A stretch of DNA of 41,265 nucleotides from Acidimicrobiales bacterium. Its GTDB lineage: Bacteria > Actinomycetota > Acidimicrobiia > Acidimicrobiales > UBA8190. This document shows, one piece after another, positions 10,171 to 29,677 of this stretch (positions are counted from its first letter, which is position 1; the number at the start of each line of letters is the position of its first letter). The stretch covers positions 1 to 41,265 of the forward strand of contig JADGOL010000195.1 of the NCBI GenBank assembly GCA_017882995.1. The letters run 5' to 3'. The position numbers and the translations under genes are program-made. Below the pieces are notes generated by a model. That model worked only from the letters and a program-made list of their open reading frames with translations. It was not told the origin of the DNA and did no database searches.

Positions 10171-11349
10171 TCAGGAAATGGTGATCGAGAGGACTTTCGT
10201 GGTGGAATTCTGTGTGTGGGGTCTAGTACTCGTCTTCTTGTCCAGCGCTTCCACCGTGAAGGTGAACGTCCCAGCATCTCTGTGGTTGGGCATTCCCGAG
10301 ATGACCCCGCTGTGTCTATTGAGCTTGAGTCCCTGAGGGAGCTTCGACGAACCCGGCGCCAGTTTCCAGATGTATGGGGGGTTTCCGCCCCCGGCGGTCA
10401 TGGTGGCTGAATATTCCTGCCCAATCCTTCCGTTGTGCAGCGAGGTCGTGGAGATGATCAGGGGAGTCGCCGCCACGGCGATCACTGGGAAGATGGGCGT
10501 GGAGTACGGGGCCGCCCGCACGATGCCCGACGGTTCGCTGTGATTGAGGTGCGCCGTGCAATTCAAGAGGAGCGAGCTGCCCGATACCTCCAGAGTCAAG
10601 TGGGTTCGCTCGTCCTGCTTGATGGTGATGCTCGTGCCCGATGCCGTGAAGGGCCCGACAGACGCTGCCGAGACCGGGAAGTTGATTGTGAGCCCTTGAT
10701 CGGGCACCGGCGACGGGATGGGAACGTCGAAGGACGCCGTGGACTTCGGGGCTGACGACGGTGATGCCCCGGTGGCGTCGACCTGGGTGGTCGCCGTCCC
10801 GCTGATGTCGCTATTACCCAAGGCGGCAGCAGCACCAACCACTGATGATGGAAGGACCAAGGTGGTCTGGTAGCCGGTCAACTGGAAGTGCTCTCCGGCC
10901 GCGGGGGCCGAAGGTGAAATCGTTCCCGAGGTGACCACGTCGTTGAACACGAGGTTCCCGACCGGGGAACCTGGGCAGTAGAGCTCGTACGGGGCACTGT
11001 CGGCGAAGGCCGGAGATCCCAACCCCTGAATCGACACGATCGCCAGTGTTGAGACGCCAAGCCCAAGGACGGTCACTCCTCGCCGGAGATCGAACAGCCG
11101 CCGAGCCTCTCCCGCCTGCAACCCCGCCGTCCGGTGCACCCGAACCCCCCGTCGCAAAGGCACCCGCCACCTCTGCGAACTCAAGGCTAAACGAGCCCTG
11201 ATGAGGTGTCCACCGACGAAATGACACACAGACGCTGGTCCTCGGTCCGGCGTGGTTGGCCTTCGCGGCTCGCAACCACTCAACGAAGGCAATCCGGCCG
11301 TCACCATGCAGAAATCCCGTCCTGCCCCCGGTCGGCATCCGAACGCCAC
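10171..11349 (-). CDS. Secreted protein with one YELYCPG domain and a C-terminal putative Ig (He_PIG-like) domain; true start uncertain (possibly GTG near 11076)
   Basis: Signal-like VTVLGLGVSTLAIVSIQGLGSPAFA; DSAPYELYCPGSPVGNLVFNDVVTSG...; NGRIGQEYSATMTAGGGNPPYIWKLAPGSSKLPQGLKLNRHSGVISGMPNHRDAGTFTFTVEALD. Confidence 0.75.
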   Translation of the reverse strand: MAFGCRPGAGRDFCMVTAGLPSLSGCEPRRPTTPDRGPASVCHFVGGHLIRARLALSSQRWRVPLRRGVRVHRTAGLQAGEARRLFDLRRGVTVLGLGVSTLAIVSIQGLGSPAFADSAPYELYCPGSPVGNLVFNDVVTSGTISPSAPAAGEHFQLTGYQTTLVLPSSVVGAAAALGNSDISGTATTQVDATGASPSSAPKSTASFDVPIPSPVPDQGLTINFPVSAASVGPFTASGTSITIKQDERTHLTLEVSGSSLLLNCTAHLNHSEPSGIVRAAPYSTPIFPVIAVAATPLIISTTSLHNGRIGQEYSATMTAGGGNPPYIWKLAPGSSKLPQGLKLNRHSGVISGMPNHRDAGTFTFTVEALDKKTSTRPHTQNSTTKVLSITIS

Positions 11350-12542: not shown

Positions 12543-14390
12543 TCACAGATCCCACGCACGGCGGCGACCGCTGGCCTCGAAGGCCTGGCGCAGAGCATCT
12601 TCAGCTTGTGATGTGAAAACGCGATAGGAGTCGTGTGCTCCTGTGCGCACATAGATCGGGTCCCCACCGACGAGATCGGAGCGAAACCTTTGGCAGACGA
12701 GCGTGCGGGTGAGAACCTTGTTGGTCGGAGTGGTGGGAAGTGCCTTGCAGAGGCGAACGAAGCGCGGCCACCACTTGGGACTGAGATCGGTTTGCTCGGT
12801 CAACCAGGCAGCGAACGACCTGCCGTCGAACTCGGCGCCTTCTCGAAGCACCAGCGCCACCATAACCTGGTCGCCTGAGTCGGAATCGGGGACGCCGTAC
12901 ACCGACGCCATCACGACGTCGGGGTGACGAGCCACGATGGCTTCGATCGGGGCCGCCGGAAAATTCTCTCCGTCCACTCGCAACCAGTCCGTTGTCCGAC
13001 CCGCGAAGAACACCCAACCGTCGTCGTCGACATAGGCGAGGTCACCACTCCAGTACCAGCCGTTGCGTGTGGTTCGGTGCATGGCCTCCTCGTTGTGGTA
13101 ATACCCCTCGAATGGGCCCACGCCGAGAGTGTTCACGATTTCGCCGACGCACTCCTCGGCGTTCATGAGACGGCCAGCCCCGTCGAAGTTCGCTCTCGGA
13201 ACCTCGTCACCCCCGGAATCGACGACAAGGATCCCCTCGCGCAACTGTCCGACGGAACCGCGCGGAGGGCCTCCGGAGCGATCCAACGCGATCGCTCCTT
13301 CAGTTGATCCGAAGACGTCGACGATAGTGATCCCGAAACGCTGAGCGGCAGCTTCCACGACACGGGGCGAGCCTTCGTTACCGAAGGCGATTCTCAAGGT
13401 GTTGTTCGCATCGTCGTCCCGCTCGGGCGTGGACAACAGGTAGGCGAGCAACTTACCGGTGTAGTTGAACCACGTCGCGCCGTAACGTCGCACATCGGGC
13501 AGAAACCGCGATGCACTGAAGCGACGGGCGAGGGAAAGAGATGCGCCTGCGACCAGCGCGGGTGCCAGACCCGACATCAAGGAATTGGCATGGAACAGAG
13601 GCATGGCCGCGTACCCGACGTCATCAGGACCGACGCCGAGCATCGTCGCCATCCGCTGGCCCGTCGTGAGCAGTCTGCGCTGCGTGCATCGCACCGCCTT
13701 CGGTGCAGCTGAGGTACCGGAAGTGAACAGCAACGCCCACAGGGTTTCCAGTTCACACTCGAGCTCAGACCGACCTTCGGGGCTCTCGCCCCCTGGGTCA
13801 TCTCTTGCGGCGACGGCGACCGCATCATCCAACAACTCGCCCATCGACCTGGGCGGGTCATCAGCATCGACAAAGCGCTCAGAGACGAGGATGCCTCCCG
13901 ACAGATCCAACCCCTCAATGGCCGGGTGGAGCAAGGCTTGATGGCGAGGCTCGGTGATCAGAAGCTGTACATCGGTGTGTGAGATGTCGCGAGCCAGGTG
14001 CTCGTCGCGCCGCGTGTGGTTCAGCCCGACCACCGCCGCTCCCACAAGTCCCGCTCCGCACAGCGCAAACACATAGTCCGGGGTGTTGTCCAACAGTATG
14101 GCGACATGGGGAGGCCGATCGGGATCGAGTCGAGTGCGGTAGAGCGCGGCAAAACGCTCGGCCTCGACAAGGAGCTCCGCGTGAGTCCAGATCTGGTCGC
14201 CGAAGTGGAGGGCGGGGCGGCTGGAGTAACCCGCGTCGAGACCGTTGCGTCTCAGAAGGGCGGCGACGTTGCGAGCTGGGAGGGGCACTTCATGGAGGGG
14301 TGGAGCGAACACCAGTGGTTCGGCCACCTCAGTGGATTGCCGAGAGCGAGGGGCGGCACGCCTTTCGCTCGCCACTGTCTCTATGCGCAA
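12543..14390 (-). CDS. AMP-binding acyl-CoA synthetase (FadD17-like)
   Basis: LLFTSGTSAAPKAVRCTQRRLL AMP-binding signature; VDVFGSTEGAI; WYWSGDLAYVDDDGWVFFAGRTTDWLRVDGENF. Confidence 0.9.
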   Translation of the reverse strand: MRIETVASERRAAPRSRQSTEVAEPLVFAPPLHEVPLPARNVAALLRRNGLDAGYSSRPALHFGDQIWTHAELLVEAERFAALYRTRLDPDRPPHVAILLDNTPDYVFALCGAGLVGAAVVGLNHTRRDEHLARDISHTDVQLLITEPRHQALLHPAIEGLDLSGGILVSERFVDADDPPRSMGELLDDAVAVAARDDPGGESPEGRSELECELETLWALLFTSGTSAAPKAVRCTQRRLLTTGQRMATMLGVGPDDVGYAAMPLFHANSLMSGLAPALVAGASLSLARRFSASRFLPDVRRYGATWFNYTGKLLAYLLSTPERDDDANNTLRIAFGNEGSPRVVEAAAQRFGITIVDVFGSTEGAIALDRSGGPPRGSVGQLREGILVVDSGGDEVPRANFDGAGRLMNAEECVGEIVNTLGVGPFEGYYHNEEAMHRTTRNGWYWSGDLAYVDDDGWVFFAGRTTDWLRVDGENFPAAPIEAIVARHPDVVMASVYGVPDSDSGDQVMVALVLREGAEFDGRSFAAWLTEQTDLSPKWWPRFVRLCKALPTTPTNKVLTRTLVCQRFRSDLVGGDPIYVRTGAHDSYRVFTSQAEDALRQAFEASGRRRAWDL

Positions 14391-14427
14391 CCACGCTCTG
14401 CATCACCGTCACTCCTGCTGCGTGGGA

Positions 14428-17045
<2,618 letters not shown>

Positions 17046-17310
17046 CCGGCGTGGCCTTCGGGGCCGGGCCGGGCCCGGTCCGCAAGTCGCCACCGGCGAC
17101 GACGTCACGGAACGGGTAGCGCCGAACCGAGCCCCGACTTGGACACGAGACGCCAATCGGGTGAACATCGCCGGACCATGTTCGGCCCCCGACGATCAGG
17201 GCGGGGAAGGGATGTCGTCGCTCTCTCGGCCGAGTGTCAGTATTCCTTGGCAGACCTCGCGGTGGCGGCTCTCGTGTCCGTTCGCCACGGGCCGAGCACT
17301 CGGAGAAGCC

Positions 17311-18513
17311 ATGGCCAGCGAAGAGTCGTCCCGGGGAGAAGACGAGGGTCCCTCGGGTGATCCACAGGCACCGGGGCCGCTGGCGGGACTCCGCGTCATC
17401 GAGCTCGCCGGGCTCGGGCCCGGGCCATTCTGCGCCATGGTTCTGGCCGACCTGGGGGCGGAGGTCATGCGCGTGGAGCGAGTCAAGATGCCCGAAGCGG
17501 GCCCGGGCTCTGTCGACCGTCGGCAGGTCCTGACGAGAGGACGGCCGGCCATAGGGGTCGACCTCAAGCGCGAGCAGGGAATCGAGCTGGTACTCGACAT
17601 GGTCGAACATGCCGATGTGCTGATCGAGGGATTCCGTCCAGGTGTCCTCGAGCGGATCGGTCTCGGTCCGACTGTTTGCCTCGAGCGCAATCCCCGACTG
17701 ATCTACGGACGGATCACCGGATACGGGCGGGACGGACCTTTGGCCGCCGAAGCCGGCCATGACATCAACTACATCTCCATCGCCGGGGCCCTTGCCCCCA
17801 TCGGCCGGCGAGGCGAAGCTCCCGTCCCGCCGCTGAACCTGATCGCCGACTTCGGTGGCGGAGGGATGCTCCTAGCGATGGGAGTTCTCGCAGCAATCTT
17901 CGAGCGGACTCGCTCCGATCGTGGCCAGGTGGTCGACGCCGCCATGGTGGACGGCGCCGCATTGCTCACCACGATGTTTCATCAGATCCGCGCCCTGTCC
18001 CTCTGGCACGACGAGCGTGGGACCAATTCCATGGACACGGGCGCCCACTATTACAACGTGTATGAGACATCTGATGGTGAATTCGTGTCCGTCGGGGCCA
18101 TGGAGTCTCACTTCTACCATTCGTTCATGAAGGGACTCGGCTTTTCCGAGGAGGACATCCCTCCACAAGACGACCAATCACAGTGGGAGTCTCTGAAGCA
18201 GCGCGTCGCAGAGATCTTCCGAAGCAGGACACGGGACGAGTGGTTGGACACATTCCGAGGCACCGATGCCTGCGTGACCCCGGTGTTGTCACTGGGCGAA
18301 GCCCCCGGCCACCCTCACAACCTCCAACGTGGCACTTTTGTCGACGTCGGGGGCGTCTTGGAGCCGGCGCCGGCACCAAGATTCAGCCGCACCCCTCCCC
18401 CAGCTCCTTCTCCGGCACCGGGCCCGGGTGTCCACGCCCTCGAGGCACTCCTCGGGTGGGGGCTCATGCGGAACGAAATCGACCGCCTGGTCGAAGATGG
18501 GGTCATCGACTGA
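17311..18513 (+). CDS. CaiB/BaiF-type CoA-transferase (alpha-methylacyl-CoA racemase-like)
   Basis: PLAGLRVIELAGLGPGPFCAMVLADLGAEVMRVER; YGRITGYGRDGPLAAEAGHDINYISIAGAL. Confidence 0.92.
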   Translation: MASEESSRGEDEGPSGDPQAPGPLAGLRVIELAGLGPGPFCAMVLADLGAEVMRVERVKMPEAGPGSVDRRQVLTRGRPAIGVDLKREQGIELVLDMVEHADVLIEGFRPGVLERIGLGPTVCLERNPRLIYGRITGYGRDGPLAAEAGHDINYISIAGALAPIGRRGEAPVPPLNLIADFGGGGMLLAMGVLAAIFERTRSDRGQVVDAAMVDGAALLTTMFHQIRALSLWHDERGTNSMDTGAHYYNVYETSDGEFVSVGAMESHFYHSFMKGLGFSEEDIPPQDDQSQWESLKQRVAEIFRSRTRDEWLDTFRGTDACVTPVLSLGEAPGHPHNLQRGTFVDVGGVLEPAPAPRFSRTPPPAPSPAPGPGVHALEALLGWGLMRNEIDRLVEDGVID

Positions 18514-18598
18514 TCCGACCCGGGGGTCAACCAGCACGGTTGGGTCGGTTCGACAAGCACCGCCACGACGCGGCGCAGCGAGCAGAGAGCAAATCGCT

Positions 18599-19054
18599 AT
18601 GAGTCACACACAGCTCACAAGAAGGACCGTGGCCATGACCGTGGCCCTGGCAGTGTTGGGTGCTGCGTGTGCTCTCGTTGTGACCGATCAAAGGGGGCGT
18701 ACCGAGGTCCGCCGAACCACAGATGCATTGACGACGGCGGTCAATCGCCAACGACAAGAGAGCGGGCGACTCCTGAGCACCCGGGCGCAGATGCGAACGA
18801 CGGTGTCAGAGGCGCGAACGCTGCAGATGTCTATCTCGCGGACTCAGGCCTCTCTTGCCACCTCGAATGCGTCGATCTCATCGGTGGAAAAGGGCCTCGA
18901 GTTCGGGGGCTTCAACATCTCCGAACTCAACACGTGTCTCGGCGGCGTGACCCAGGCACTCGACCAGGCGGCAGTCGGACAGACCAAGGGCGCACTCTCG
19001 TCACTCGGGGCGGCAGCGGCGAGTTGCGAAGCGGCCAAGCCCGGCGGAGGGTAG
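18599..19054 (+). CDS. Membrane-anchored coiled-coil protein with C-terminal 'NxxxLNTC...C' module
   Basis: TM VAMTVALAVLGAACALVV; heptad-like region; FNISELNTCLGGVTQALDQAAVGQTKGALSSLGAAAASC. Confidence 0.7.
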   Translation: MSHTQLTRRTVAMTVALAVLGAACALVVTDQRGRTEVRRTTDALTTAVNRQRQESGRLLSTRAQMRTTVSEARTLQMSISRTQASLATSNASISSVEKGLEFGGFNISELNTCLGGVTQALDQAAVGQTKGALSSLGAAAASCEAAKPGGG

Positions 19055-19056
19055 GT

Positions 19057-20367
19057 GTGGGCCGCCATCGCGCGGGTCGGACCGTTGGATACCTGGTGAT
19101 CCTCTTGCTCCTCTGCCTCGGTTTGGTCGACGACCTTCTGACACAAGTGCGACTTCACCACGCGCAGGTCAGCCTGGCTGTCACCCGGAGAGCGCTGGAT
19201 CGGAGCTCGAGAGAACTGGACTCGGCGCAGCAGACATTGGCGGTAACCAATGCGGCGAAAGTGGCCGATCAGGCGGCACTGAGCCAGCTCTCCGGTGAAC
19301 TCGCTTCTGCTCAACAACGGCTCACTCAGGCCAAGCAGGGTCTGGAATTGCAGAACTACAACATCACCACCCTCAACACCTGCGTGTCTGGCGTGCTGCA
19401 GGCGGTGAAGGACATTCAGGCGGGCCAAGCGCAAGCCGCGATCAGTGCCATCAGCGGTGTGGCGCGCCCGTGCCAGAACCTCCAGGGGTCCAACCCGGGC
19501 GGGCCCGCCTACCCGTTCGACTTCCCCGACCCCGACGTCCTCGACGTTGCCGGGACGTATTTCGCGTACGCCACCAACTCGGCTGGCGGGAACATCCAGA
19601 TCATCAAATCGAATGATCTCTCGCACTGGAAGACGGTCGGAGATGCGCTTCCGAAACCGGCGTCCTGGGCGTCGACGGGGTATACGTGGGCACCAGGAGT
19701 TCTCCATCACCGGCGGCGGTTCCTCCTCTATTACTCGACCGTTCGCCACCACGGCCTCGTCTCGGAACAATGCATCTCCGTGGCGACGGCGCGTCACCCC
19801 GGGGGTCCCTTCGTCGACTCGTCCCAGGCACCGCTCTTATGTCAAGCCGCCCTCGGCGGGTCCATCGACCCCGCGCCGTACACCGATGCATCGGGCAAGC
19901 CCTACCTCACTTGGAAGTCGAACGGAGGAGCCGGCCAGCCGGCGACGATCTGGGCCGAGGCTCTCTCGCCATCGGGCATCACCATGGCGCCACATAGTTC
20001 ACCGACCACTCTGCTCCGGCCCACTCAACCCTGGGAGGGGTCGGTCGTGGAAGGCGCCTTCATGTGGTCTTCAGCGGGCTCCTACTACCTCTTCTACTCG
20101 GGGAACAACTGGAATAGTGCGTCCTATGCCATCGGGGTAGCTCTCTGCACGGGGCCACTTGGCCCCTGTACGAAACCCCTCGATGGCCCCTTCTACATAT
20201 CGAAATCGAATCTGGCAGGCCCCGGTGGCGCCTCGTTGTTTCGGGACCCTCAGGGCAATCCTTGGGTGGCCTTCCACGCGTGGCTGCCCGGTGCCGTCGG
20301 ATACCCAAACGCCCGCCTCCTCTTCGTGCGGCCCTTGGCTTCTCTGGGCAATCTGCCTCCGCCGTAG
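19057..20367 (+). CDS. Membrane-anchored coiled-coil + GH43-type glycoside hydrolase
   Basis: TM VGYLVILLLLCLGLVDDLL; YNITTLNTCVSGVLQAVKDIQ...C; FPDPDVLDVAGTYFAYAT, SIDPAPYTDASGKPYLTWKSNG, EGSVVEGAFMWSSAGSYYLFYSGNNW. Confidence 0.8.
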   Translation: MGRHRAGRTVGYLVILLLLCLGLVDDLLTQVRLHHAQVSLAVTRRALDRSSRELDSAQQTLAVTNAAKVADQAALSQLSGELASAQQRLTQAKQGLELQNYNITTLNTCVSGVLQAVKDIQAGQAQAAISAISGVARPCQNLQGSNPGGPAYPFDFPDPDVLDVAGTYFAYATNSAGGNIQIIKSNDLSHWKTVGDALPKPASWASTGYTWAPGVLHHRRRFLLYYSTVRHHGLVSEQCISVATARHPGGPFVDSSQAPLLCQAALGGSIDPAPYTDASGKPYLTWKSNGGAGQPATIWAEALSPSGITMAPHSSPTTLLRPTQPWEGSVVEGAFMWSSAGSYYLFYSGNNWNSASYAIGVALCTGPLGPCTKPLDGPFYISKSNLAGPGGASLFRDPQGNPWVAFHAWLPGAVGYPNARLLFVRPLASLGNLPPP

Positions 20368-25132: not shown

Positions 25133-25291
25133 TTGATTGGCCCCCAATAGTGCATCAAGGGGGTGGGATTTCATCAGTATTGACGAGGTGCCTACACGGG
25201 CTTCTGGACCAATCTAGAAGTGGCGGGGTTGAGGCGTCCGCTGGATGAGCCTGGGGGGGCTTCAGGCGTCGGCCTGATCCTCAATGCCGAG

Positions 25292-27658
25292 ATGAAACGA
25301 GGCGCGATGCGTCGCCTGCAAGCACTGGCCAAACGACTAGTACTGGCAGGTCTCGCCGCGCTGTCGCTCGGCGTCGTCATGGTTCTTGCATCGTTGGTGC
25401 ACAACGCTGGCACGCCCGCCTTCGCGGGCTCGTCGCCCTACGAGCTCTACTGTCCGGGTACGCCCGTCGGCAACATCGCATTGAACGACGTCACCACGAC
25501 CGGAAGCATCACCCCGGCGGCGCCGGCCGTGGGTGATCAGTTCAACCTGACCGGGTTTCAAACCACAGTCGCCCTGCCCAGTTCGATCGCGGCAGCGGCG
25601 GCCGCGTTGGGGAACTCGGCAATCGCGGGCAGCGCTGCACTCAAGGTCGACGCCACCGGCGCCACCCCGGCGGCGGTCGCCGCCCCGCCCATCTCGATCG
25701 ACGCACCGATTCCATCCCCGGTGCCCGCGGCGGGCCTAGTGCTTACATTGCCTTCGACGCCCGCGACCGTCGGTCCATTCACCGCTTCGGGCGGGACCAT
25801 CACGCTCACGGTGGACCCAGCGGTCTCGTTGGTTCTCGTCGTTTCGGGCAGCAACCTGAGCCTGACGTGCACGCCCTATCCGAACAACAGCGCGACCACC
25901 GGCATCGTCAGTGTGGCGCCGACGACGGCGAAGGCGTCTCCGGTCATCGCGGTGGCTACTCCAGGATCGACGACATCGACAACCATCGAGAGCTCGACAA
26001 GCACCACCGCTGGGAACACGACGACAACGACGGCGCCGACGGCGCCACTAACTGGCGCTTACGAGCTGTATTGCCCCGGCACTCCCGTCGGGACCGTCGT
26101 CCTCAACGACGCTGTGACCTCGGCGTCGTTGTCGCCCCCAGCCCCGATCTCTGGCCAGCCATTCAGCGTGACGGGATACCAGACGACGGTGAATCTCCCA
26201 TCCGCCTTGGCTGGTGCGGCGGCTGCCGTCGGTGGACCGAACCTGACCGGATCCGCCACGACTCAGATCGACGCCAGTGGGGCCACCCCGGCCGCGCTCG
26301 CCCAGGGCCCGCTCGACTTCAACGTCCCCATTCCGAGCCCGGTCCCTGATGCCGGGGTGACGTTGTCGCTGCCTTCTACTCCCGCGACCATCGGCGGATT
26401 CACCGCCACATCGGGACCGATCACGATCGAGCAGGACTCTTCGGCCAGCCTGTCGCTGACGGTGGCAGGCAACGCCCTGGTGCTCACTTGCACGGCGTAC
26501 CCCAACGACTCGGTGACGCCCTCGGGCATTGCCACCACGATCCCGACCGCCAACCCGATCGCCCCGGTGATCGCCAGCGCGGCAGGCAGCTCCTCGACAA
26601 CCACGACGACGGCAGGTCCCACGACGACGACCTCAGCGCCGTCAACGACGACAACGTCAAGTTCTGGGATCACTACGACGACGACGGCGGTGACGACGGG
26701 CACCTCGAGCCCCACGTCAACGTCGACACCATCCGCGACGTCGTCCACTCAGGGGAGTTCTGGGAGCACGACCTCGACACCTCCGAAGCCGACCACCTCA
26801 ACCGTTCCGGCAACCAAGTCCGCCTCGTCGACCTCTTCCACAGCTCGGGCCGTCACCGCCTCTTCACGGTCCCTTGCATTCACCGGGCCTGGTCCAGGTC
26901 TCAAGACGATGACGTTGATCGGAGCCGTTGTCATCCTCTTCGGACTCTTGATGCTTCTCCTCGCAGACTTTCCTCGCCGGGTCATCAACCAGCTCACTTA
27001 CGCGAGTCCAAGACACAGGAAGATTCGAACGACTGGTGGCACAAGAGTCACGGGCAAGACGACCAACCAAGATGCCTTCCCGGAGGCTAGAGAATCGTGC
27101 CAAACGCTCTTCAGGCGGACTGAAACACTCAGAGTGCACGAGGACCTCTTCTTCTCACCGGGAGGGATCACGGCACTGGTTGGCGATGGCCCGGTGAAAT
27201 CTCACGGACCCACCGCTAGAGGAACCTCACATCCTGACGTCGATGAACCGAATTCACCGATCAGTACCGGCGAGCAATCGTCCCCACATGCAGATGCAAC
27301 CGATGAGGCTGGCTATCCCCCGCCGTATGAAGCCAACGCAACACTGCCTTGGTGGTTGGCATCAGACGGGGTGTGGTACCCACCCCAGCAACACCCTGAC
27401 TTCACGGGAGCCCTCGAGCCATCTCGCCCGGCTCTCGCGTTGGAAGTGGCCAGCGACACGGCGAACCCCTCCCCGGGCAGCCCACCTGCGGGGTGGTACG
27501 AGAACCCGCTCGGAAACGGTCTCCGCTATTGGGACGGTGCGAGTTGGACTGAGGAGTTCGCCTTCCGGCGATACGTGACAGCTCTTGACGAGCCTCCGCC
27601 CGGACAAGCTCAGCGCTTGGAGCTTCCCGGCTGGTGGTTGACGTCGGGTGACATCTGA
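25292..27658 (+). CDS. Large secreted/surface protein: signal peptide, two YELYCPG domains, Thr/Ser-rich linker, LAFTG + TM, then C-terminal region with DUF2510-like motifs
   Basis: SSPYELYCPGTPVGNIALND..., GAYELYCPGTPVGTVVLND..., T/S-rich 26590-26860, SLAFTGPGPGLKTMTLIGAVVILFGLLMLLLADFPRR, LPWWLASDGVWYPPQQHPDF, PAGWYENPLGNGLRYWDGASWTEEF. Confidence 0.8.
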   Translation: MKRGAMRRLQALAKRLVLAGLAALSLGVVMVLASLVHNAGTPAFAGSSPYELYCPGTPVGNIALNDVTTTGSITPAAPAVGDQFNLTGFQTTVALPSSIAAAAAALGNSAIAGSAALKVDATGATPAAVAAPPISIDAPIPSPVPAAGLVLTLPSTPATVGPFTASGGTITLTVDPAVSLVLVVSGSNLSLTCTPYPNNSATTGIVSVAPTTAKASPVIAVATPGSTTSTTIESSTSTTAGNTTTTTAPTAPLTGAYELYCPGTPVGTVVLNDAVTSASLSPPAPISGQPFSVTGYQTTVNLPSALAGAAAAVGGPNLTGSATTQIDASGATPAALAQGPLDFNVPIPSPVPDAGVTLSLPSTPATIGGFTATSGPITIEQDSSASLSLTVAGNALVLTCTAYPNDSVTPSGIATTIPTANPIAPVIASAAGSSSTTTTTAGPTTTTSAPSTTTTSSSGITTTTTAVTTGTSSPTSTSTPSATSSTQGSSGSTTSTPPKPTTSTVPATKSASSTSSTARAVTASSRSLAFTGPGPGLKTMTLIGAVVILFGLLMLLLADFPRRVINQLTYASPRHRKIRTTGGTRVTGKTTNQDAFPEARESCQTLFRRTETLRVHEDLFFSPGGITALVGDGPVKSHGPTARGTSHPDVDEPNSPISTGEQSSPHADATDEAGYPPPYEANATLPWWLASDGVWYPPQQHPDFTGALEPSRPALALEVASDTANPSPGSPPAGWYENPLGNGLRYWDGASWTEEFAFRRYVTALDEPPPGQAQRLELPGWWLTSGDI

Positions 27659-28630: not shown

Positions 28631-28741
28631 CGCAAAGTTGGTCACGTCAGGGCCCCGAGTTGATTCAGTGGGGTCACGATCAGGGGTGTGAGCTCGCGAC
28701 AAGCCACGGTCTTTGGACCCACGTGCAGGGAGGAGGCAACC

Positions 28742-29677
28742 ATGCGGCGCTTCAGAAGCCAGAAGTCCGACGGCTCGCCTTCGGAGGGAAAAGGGGACAG
28801 CGCCAGCGAGGCTGGCGAGGAGACGCTGCCATCGCAACAGACGGCGACCCCCACCGCGGCTCTCGCCGACTACAACGCTTCGGTGCCGGCGGCATGGTAT
28901 CCCGACCCAGACGATCCGACGGCACTCCGATACTGGGACGGCGCCACGTGGGCCGAGCGAACCCAACCTCTCCCTCCCCCCCCTCCCCCGCCAGCTCCGC
29001 CACCTCCGCCAGCCCGAGAGGCGATCACGGATCGGTCCCAGGAAGCTGCCGAATCGGCCATTCCGCATGACGCCACACCCCAGGCAATCTCGGCCGACGG
29101 CAAGGCCGGAGAGGCAGCGGAAGGGACCGGCGGCCCTCCGGACGAGACACAGAAGGATGCCGGCGTTTGGGTCGGTGCGACTAAGACGGCTGTGGCGAAT
29201 GCCCTGGCCGTCGGCACGCCTGAAGCATGGCTGAACGCGGCGCAATCCGCCGTGGTGGTCGCGGAAATGGCTCACACCATGCAGATGGCAACGCACGCCC
29301 GCCAGATCGCCGAACAAGCGACCCAGGGTGCCCAAGTGGCAACGCACGAGGCCCAAGTGTTGGCCCAAGCTGCCGCCCAGGCGATGCGGACGGCTGAACA
29401 GACGGCGCAAGCTGCCGAAGTGGCCGCTCGAGAAGCTCGTGACGCTGCCAACGCAGCGACAAGTGCAAAGCAAAGGGCTGAACAAATGGCCGAGGCAGCC
29501 CCGAAGGCGGTCGATGACGCCCAGGTCGCGGTCGAAGCGGCTGCCAACGCCAGTGCCAAGGCGGAGGAACTTGACAAGGAGGTTGTGAAAGCGAGTCAAG
29601 CAAATTCGCCAGAAGCCTGGAGCGAAGCCCTGCGAGTTGTGACCGCAGCGTGGGAGAAGGGGACCGACCATACCTAA
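28742..29677 (+). CDS. DUF2510 domain + polyproline + Ala-rich helical repeat protein
   Basis: AAWYPDPDDPTALRYWDGATWAERTQ; PPLPPPPPPPAPPPPPA; long Ala/Glu/Gln-rich helix-forming C-terminal half. Confidence 0.75.
   Translation: MRRFRSQKSDGSPSEGKGDSASEAGEETLPSQQTATPTAALADYNASVPAAWYPDPDDPTALRYWDGATWAERTQPLPPPPPPPAPPPPPAREAITDRSQEAAESAIPHDATPQAISADGKAGEAAEGTGGPPDETQKDAGVWVGATKTAVANALAVGTPEAWLNAAQSAVVVAEMAHTMQMATHARQIAEQATQGAQVATHEAQVLAQAAAQAMRTAEQTAQAAEVAAREARDAANAATSAKQRAEQMAEAAPKAVDDAQVAVEAAANASAKAEELDKEVVKASQANSPEAWSEALRVVTAAWEKGTDHT

What the first reader, a model, noticed from the sequence alone, without database searches (positions are those of the whole stretch)
25292..26580. Duplicated ~165-aa extracellular 'YELYCPG' domain of unknown function
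The protein carries two copies: SSPYELYCPGTPVGNIALNDVTTTGSITPAAPAVGDQFNLTGFQTTVALPSSIAAAAAALGNSAIAGSAALKVDATGATP... and GAYELYCPGTPVGTVVLNDAVTSASLSPPAPISGQPFSVTGYQTTVNLPSALAGAAAAVGGPNLTGSATTQIDASGATP.... Both continue with a conserved IPSPVP..G..L.LPSTPAT(V/I)G.FTA(S/T)....I......SL.L.V.G..L.LTC..YPN. Two invariant Cys (YCPG and LTC) suggest a disulfide-stabilised beta domain. I cannot name a family for it.
Basis: partly seen in the sequence, partly recalled or inferred. Interest (0 to 1): 0.6.

Follow-up and report, generated by a model that had tools for sequence, protein, structure and literature searches.

The report
Divergent DUF6801 wall-anchored surface protein
An uncultured actinobacterium (order Acidimicrobiales) encodes a cell-surface protein whose two repeated, probably disulfide-clamped beta domains are distant members of a catalogued but functionally uncharacterised family (DUF6801), probably attached to the cell wall by a class E sortase; it is a lineage-specific expansion of a known kind of domain, not a new kind.

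Summary
The gene (window 25292/25307-27658, +) has a signal peptide, two 153-aa domains (25430-25888 and 26051-26509, 57% identical), Thr/Ser-rich linkers, an LAFTG motif, a transmembrane helix and a basic tail. The family can be named: a divergent branch of Pfam DUF6801 (PF20611, uncharacterised). Copy 1 scores just under the Pfam cut-off (25.2 vs 26 bits) and copy 2 misses it, but 34 of 42 related domains hit DUF6801, and profile-profile comparison with 31 actinobacterial DUF6801 domains gives 96.7% over 132 columns, with two cysteines, a proline and a glycine corresponding. The copies are not a recent local duplication: they sit in different supported clades, each shared with relatives. Relatives carry 1-5 domains per protein, with TIG, He_PIG, GDSL-hydrolase or BNR partners. 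Fifteen end in LA[F/T/S/D]TG-TM-basic; the genome has a single sortase, closest to class E. AlphaFold gives a confident all-beta fold for both copies; no reliable PDB match. Best explanation: a disulfide-stabilised Ig-like module of class-E-sortase wall-anchored surface proteins, acting as stalk/adhesin or coat. Anchoring is well supported by sequence; the domain's role is inferred.

The parts
25307..27658 (+). gene of the finding; most likely start ATG 25307 (alternatives ATG 25292, GTG 25220); the longest mechanical ORF is 25220-27658, 812 aa
   Evidence: GAGG at 25299-25302 before ATG 25307; the orthologue L029 begins with a similar MK...MRRL pattern
25307..25426 (+). signal peptide MRRLQALAKRLVLAGLAALSLGVVMVLASLVHNAGTPAFA (cleavage after AFA inferred)
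   Evidence: sequence; no signal-peptide program was available
25430..25888 (+). divergent DUF6801 domain, copy 1 (Cys8 and Cys147 of the domain)
   Evidence: AlphaFold2
25889..26050 (+). Ser/Thr-rich linker (49% S+T)
26051..26509 (+). divergent DUF6801 domain, copy 2
   Evidence: AlphaFold2
26510..26872 (+). Thr/Ser/Pro-rich region, presumed wall-spanning (59% S+T)
26873..26887 (+). LAFTG, class E sortase-type sorting motif
   Evidence: motif class from PMC5148588
26909..26980 (+). transmembrane helix followed by DFPRR (stop-transfer)
   Evidence: best 18-residue mean hydropathy 2.83
26981..27658 (+). extra cytoplasmic tail with a WW..DG.WYPP motif and a DUF2510 domain (27488-27562); the orthologue's tail ends about 45 residues after the membrane
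   Evidence: (DUF2510 E 5.4e-08)
10543..10998 (-). third family member in the window, one domain
10180..10464 (-). He_PIG (putative Ig) domain C-terminal to the third copy; no LAXTG motif in this protein
   Evidence: (E 3.1e-12)

Best explanation
The protein is exported by Sec; its two DUF6801-type domains fold outside the cell as all-beta sandwiches, each clamped by one disulfide joining the first and last strands (Cys8-Cys147); the single class E sortase of the genome cuts the LAFTG motif and joins the protein to the cell wall. The Thr/Ser-rich stretches carry the domains through and beyond the wall. The domain is a reusable Ig-like surface module (1-5 copies per protein, alongside TIG, He_PIG, GDSL and BNR-type modules) that most likely serves as stalk and/or adhesive or hydrophobic coat. 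Shown by sequence: homology to DUF6801, the two-Cys pattern, modular repetition, the LAXTG-TM-basic end, one class-E-like sortase. Inferred: the disulfide, wall attachment, the binding or coat role.
For: DUF6801: copy 1 E 2e-05, 25.2 bits; 34 of 42 members match, best 2.7e-10; two own-genome copies over the cut-off in the genome search; hhalign 96.7%, E 4.5e-10, 132 columns and 94.8% with both Cys in the aligned span. Landmarks: DUF6801 invariant C8, P31, C157 and near-invariant G37 against C8, P29, C147 and G35 here. Exactly two Cys in 43/44 family domains and 26/31 DUF6801 domains. Anchoring: 15 family proteins carry LA[F/T/S/D]TG + hydrophobic span + basic residues, never LPXTG; one sortase in the genome, nearest solved relatives 5go5/5go6, with GHR.TYG and LTLTTC shared; LAXTG is the class E signal (PMC5148588). 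The same signal ends at least three further proteins of the genome that lack this domain. A true DUF6801 protein of a distant actinobacterium also ends in LASTG-TM-basic (L066). Fold: pLDDT 86.4 and 86.2, all-beta plus one short helix.
Against: No ligand, phenotype or partner is known for any DUF6801 protein (no paper in the library). The tails after the membrane (about 20-75 aa, ~230 in the window protein) are longer than in textbook sorting signals. The closest PDB match of copy 1 (3lso_A, prob 1.00, TMq 0.60, E 0.01) does not recur in the top 50 for copy 2, so the Ig-like assignment is not secure. Several relatives have no LAXTG end.
Confidence: 0.68

Rival explanations
1. The domains form a hydrophobic coat, as long chaplins or CwpA/CwpB do: class-E-sortase-anchored, hydrophobic beta domains that alter surface wettability rather than bind a ligand or act as a stalk.
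For: Domain GRAVY 0.58 and 0.34, almost no Lys/Arg (1 in 306), no Trp, His or Met; family mean 0.32 and 0.9% K+R against 0.11 and 6.4% in actinobacterial DUF6801. SrtE-anchored hydrophobic proteins control surface properties in Actinoplanes (PMC13251363).
Against: Low Lys/Arg is shared by the TIG and GDSL domains of the same genomes, so it is lineage-wide. A 153-aa folded domain is unlike the short chaplin repeat. Nothing is known of the growth form of this uncultured organism.
Confidence: 0.2
2. The domain binds lipid or another hydrophobic ligand inside the beta sandwich, like ML-domain proteins (GM2 activator, Der p 2, MD-1).
For: GM2-activator, Der p 2 and MD-1 structures recur among the weak matches of copy 2.
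Against: All with TM about 0.2-0.3 and E above 0.07, i.e. not significant; not leading for copy 1.
Confidence: 0.06
3. The two copies are a recent local duplication of an orphan sequence with no family behind it (first impression).
For: 57% identity within one gene.
Against: Copies 1 and 2 are in separate supported clades with domains of related genomes; dozens of relatives exist.
Confidence: 0.02

Closest known systems
Pfam DUF6801 (PF20611)
   Same: End-to-end profile match; invariant first and last Cys, Pro near position 30 and Gly near 36; exported or surface proteins; multiple copies per protein in some genomes; at least one member with an LASTG class-E-type anchor.
   Different: A distinct YELYCPGTPVGN start and YPN end, IPSPVP and GPFTA motifs; almost no Lys/Arg; most single domains score near or below the Pfam cut-off; strongly expanded in one Acidimicrobiales family with TIG, He_PIG, GDSL and BNR partners.
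Class E sortase (SrtE) substrates of Actinobacteria (long chaplins ChpA-C, CwpA/CwpB)
   Same: LAXTG - hydrophobic span - basic residues; a class-E-like sortase in the genome; hydrophobic beta domains, with two Cys in chaplins, in tandem.
   Different: No sequence similarity was tested; the domain is several times longer than a chaplin domain; the tail after the membrane is longer.
PDB 3LSO, membrane-anchored protein of Corynebacterium diphtheriae with Ig-like domains
   Same: Top Foldseek match of copy 1 (prob 1.00, TMq 0.60, 16% identity); called Ig-like in PMC10034466.
   Different: E-value only 0.01; not in the top 50 with copy 2 nor found by sequence profile.

Membership tests
DUF6801 (PF20611) | Pfam profile score over the curated cut-off (26 bits) | tested here: inconclusive
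   Copy 1: 25.2 bits, 22 bits in a longer stretch; copy 2: no hit. Same-family domains of the same genome pass in the genome search, L001 39.6 and L002 28.0 bits, though L002 (the window's third copy) gets 25.2 as a whole protein. L031 32.8 and L045 40.7 pass. 34/42 members hit at E<=1.
DUF6801 (PF20611) | Full-length profile-profile homology | tested here: met
   hhalign 96.7%, E 4.5e-10, 132 of 153 columns; 94.8% on a second alignment.
DUF6801 (PF20611) | Invariant N-terminal and C-terminal Cys plus early Pro/Gly | tested here: met
   C8/P31/G37/C157 in DUF6801, C8/P29/G35/C147 here; exactly two Cys in 43/44 and 26/31 domains.
Class E sortase substrate | LAXTG + transmembrane span + basic residues at the C-terminal end | tested here: met
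   LAFTG at 26873, hydropathy 2.83, then RR; but a ~230-aa tail follows in this protein.
Class E sortase substrate | Class E sortase in the genome | tested here: met
   One sortase, nearest to 5go5/5go6 with GHR.TYG and LTLTTC shared; class assignment by similarity only.
Class E sortase substrate | Demonstrated cleavage and wall attachment | not testable with these tools
   needs an experiment
Ig-like fold | Beta-sandwich topology with a significant match to a solved Ig-like domain | tested here: inconclusive
   All-beta with one helix; best match 3lso_A E 0.01 for copy 1 only.
ML-domain lipid-binding proteins | Significant structural match | tested here: not met
   GM2A, Der p 2 and MD-1 at E > 0.07, TM about 0.2-0.3.

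The most novel reading that the evidence does not exclude
The Acidimicrobiales branch of DUF6801 has a fold not represented in the PDB, and its expansion (four proteins in this genome, about a dozen in the sister genome) is the main building block of a so far undescribed class-E-sortase-anchored surface layer in these uncultured bacteria.
Probability: 0.15. Interest if true: 0.5.

Novelty: new variant of a known kind. Interest (0 to 1): 0.27.

Why it matters
It connects an unnamed, repeated surface domain to an existing but uncharacterised family, adds a two-cysteine signature that holds across both, and suggests a testable role (wall-anchored surface module displayed by class E sortase) for DUF6801 in a lineage represented here only by metagenome-assembled genomes.

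Tried and rejected
NCBIfam: no match. PDB by sequence profile: none for this family, only chance-level for DUF6801. BFVD viral structures: nothing significant. Viral contigs, phages and plasmids: no relatives, so no sign of a phage or plasmid origin. Weak Pfam names (Herpes gp350_B, RPN1_C, Peptidase_S8, Nis1) each in 1-3 of 42 members: scattered, taken as chance or composition. 3LSO as proof of an Ig fold: not accepted, because copy 2 did not reproduce it. Low Lys/Arg as a domain-specific adaptation: rejected, since TIG and GDSL domains of the same genomes share it.

Full report
OBSERVATION. The two copies exist in one open frame on the + strand. The most plausible start is ATG 25307 (GAGG four bases upstream) or ATG 25292; the frame is open from GTG 25220 to the stop ending at 27658. 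After a signal peptide ending in AFA, copy 1 is at 25430-25888 and copy 2 at 26051-26509 (153 aa each, 57% identical). The similarity is far beyond chance (score 468 against a shuffled mean of 59, maximum 104). Downstream come a Thr/Ser-rich stretch, LAFTG (26873-26887), a transmembrane helix, DFPRR, and a tail with a DUF2510 domain.

FAMILY. A search of 60 genomes found matches in 8 (the own genome included), with 20 matches in the sister genome G001. An iterated profile collected 50 matches from the window and 20 fetched regions. Forty-four near-complete domains show Cys8 (98%) and Cys147 (100%) with well-conserved Gly14, Pro29, Gly35, Pro50, Gly67 and Gly77. A profile search of 298 genomes of the order found it in 12, so the distribution is patchy. 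Named records with close relatives are all Acidimicrobiales/Acidimicrobiaceae MAGs.

NAME. The domain is a divergent DUF6801. Pfam gives 25.2 bits (cut-off 26) for copy 1 and nothing for copy 2, but 34 of 42 family members match DUF6801 while other Pfam names occur in only 1-3 members each; two domains of the own genome pass the cut-off in the genome search, as do relatives such as L031 and L045. I collected 31 DUF6801 domains from other actinobacteria; the 26 aligned as A4 all match PF20611. Profile-profile comparison: 96.7% probability over 132 columns, 94.8% with the second alignment. The invariant columns of DUF6801 (Cys8, Pro31, Cys157, near-invariant Gly37) correspond to Cys8, Pro29, Cys147 and Gly35 here. 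Exactly two cysteines occur in 43 of 44 family domains and 26 of 31 DUF6801 domains. DUF6801 has no literature in the library.

HISTORY. The tree places copy 1 in a six-domain clade (98/91) and copy 2 in a nine-domain clade (99/97); both include domains of the sister genome. The pair is therefore an old combination, retained in the orthologue L029/L048, which also keeps the divergently transcribed SRPBCC-type (Polyketide_cyc2) gene upstream.

ARCHITECTURES. Relatives carry one to five domains per protein (five in L034 and in C24 of the own genome, where one domain is split by an insertion). Partners by Pfam: GDSL lipase, TIG, He_PIG, PSII_BNR repeats. Fifteen proteins of the collected set have LAXTG with X = F, T, S or D, followed by a hydrophobic span and basic residues; some of those without it are cut by contig ends and others seem simply secreted.

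ANCHORING. The genome has one sortase gene (the assembly is 88% complete, so others could be missing). Its best solved relatives are 5go5/5go6, with shared GHR.TYG and LTLTTC motifs. In SrtE1 a Tyr of the beta3/beta4 loop is proposed to select Ala at P3 of LAXTG (PMC5148588); the Tyr of GHRTTYG is a likely counterpart (inference, not aligned to SrtE1 here). At least three further proteins of the genome without this domain end with the same LAFTG signal. A true DUF6801 protein of a distant actinobacterium ends in LASTG-TM-RRRARRD (L066), so the link between DUF6801 and class E sorting is not confined to this lineage, although most DUF6801 proteins looked at there lack such a signal.

FOLD. AlphaFold2 with 22 sequences: pLDDT 86.4 / pTM 0.73 (copy 1) and 86.2 / 0.76 (copy 2); about ten strands and one short helix; Cys8 is in the first strand and Cys147 in the last. 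Foldseek against the PDB: for copy 1 the top match is 3lso_A, a membrane-anchored protein of C. diphtheriae (E 0.01, prob 1.00, TMq 0.60), whose domains are called Ig-like in PMC10034466; for copy 2 it is not in the top 50 and nothing is significant. BFVD: nothing significant.

MECHANISM. Best supported: a disulfide-clamped, Ig-like surface module, used in repeats on Thr-rich stalks of class-E-sortase-anchored proteins. Whether it binds something, spaces other modules or coats the cell hydrophobically cannot be decided from sequence; combination with other Ig-like modules (TIG, He_PIG) and tandem repetition favour stalk/adhesion, while the high hydropathy and the resemblance in design to long chaplins and CwpA/CwpB (PMC13251363) leave room for a coat role.

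TAIL. The window protein has about 230 residues after the membrane, including DUF2510; the orthologue stops about 45 residues after it. Third-position GC falls to 0.48-0.70 in this stretch, and the tail's relatives elsewhere are short DUF2510-type motifs in other proteins. A loss of the original stop, joining a former downstream DUF2510 frame, is the simplest reading; an assembly error is not excluded.

VERDICT. Real and ordinary in kind, but not previously described in detail: a divergent, expanded branch of DUF6801. Interest 0.27.

Noticed in passing
window 26981-27658: The protein's C-terminal end carries a DUF2510 domain fused after the sorting-signal membrane span; absent from the orthologue, with weak coding signal between. 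Possible stop loss or fusion.
   Followed up: partly
window 28688-29677 (+): A second DUF2510 protein, followed by a long Ala-rich coiled-coil-like region, lies just downstream.
   Followed up: no
window 10174-11349 (-): Third family member with a He_PIG domain and no LAXTG motif; its 64% identical counterpart in the sister genome (L038) has the same architecture.
   Followed up: yes
window 12543-20367: AMP-binding ligase, Rieske ring-hydroxylating oxygenase alpha subunit and CoA-transferase family III genes, then SDR, epimerase and SnoaL-like genes: looks like an aromatic or steroid degradation region; a 566-aa protein with a C-terminal GH43 domain (18667-20367) sits among them.
   Followed up: no
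L043:5683-7641 (sister genome, - strand): Family domain fused to a GDSL/SGNH hydrolase on an LAFTG-ended protein, i.e. a probable wall-anchored esterase.
   Followed up: partly
L115 (own genome, contig C316): LAFTG-ended protein with a secreted repeat (GFALYTFPQDHNGISACTGPCIPVWPAL), an apparent class E sortase substrate without the DUF6801-type domain.
   Followed up: no
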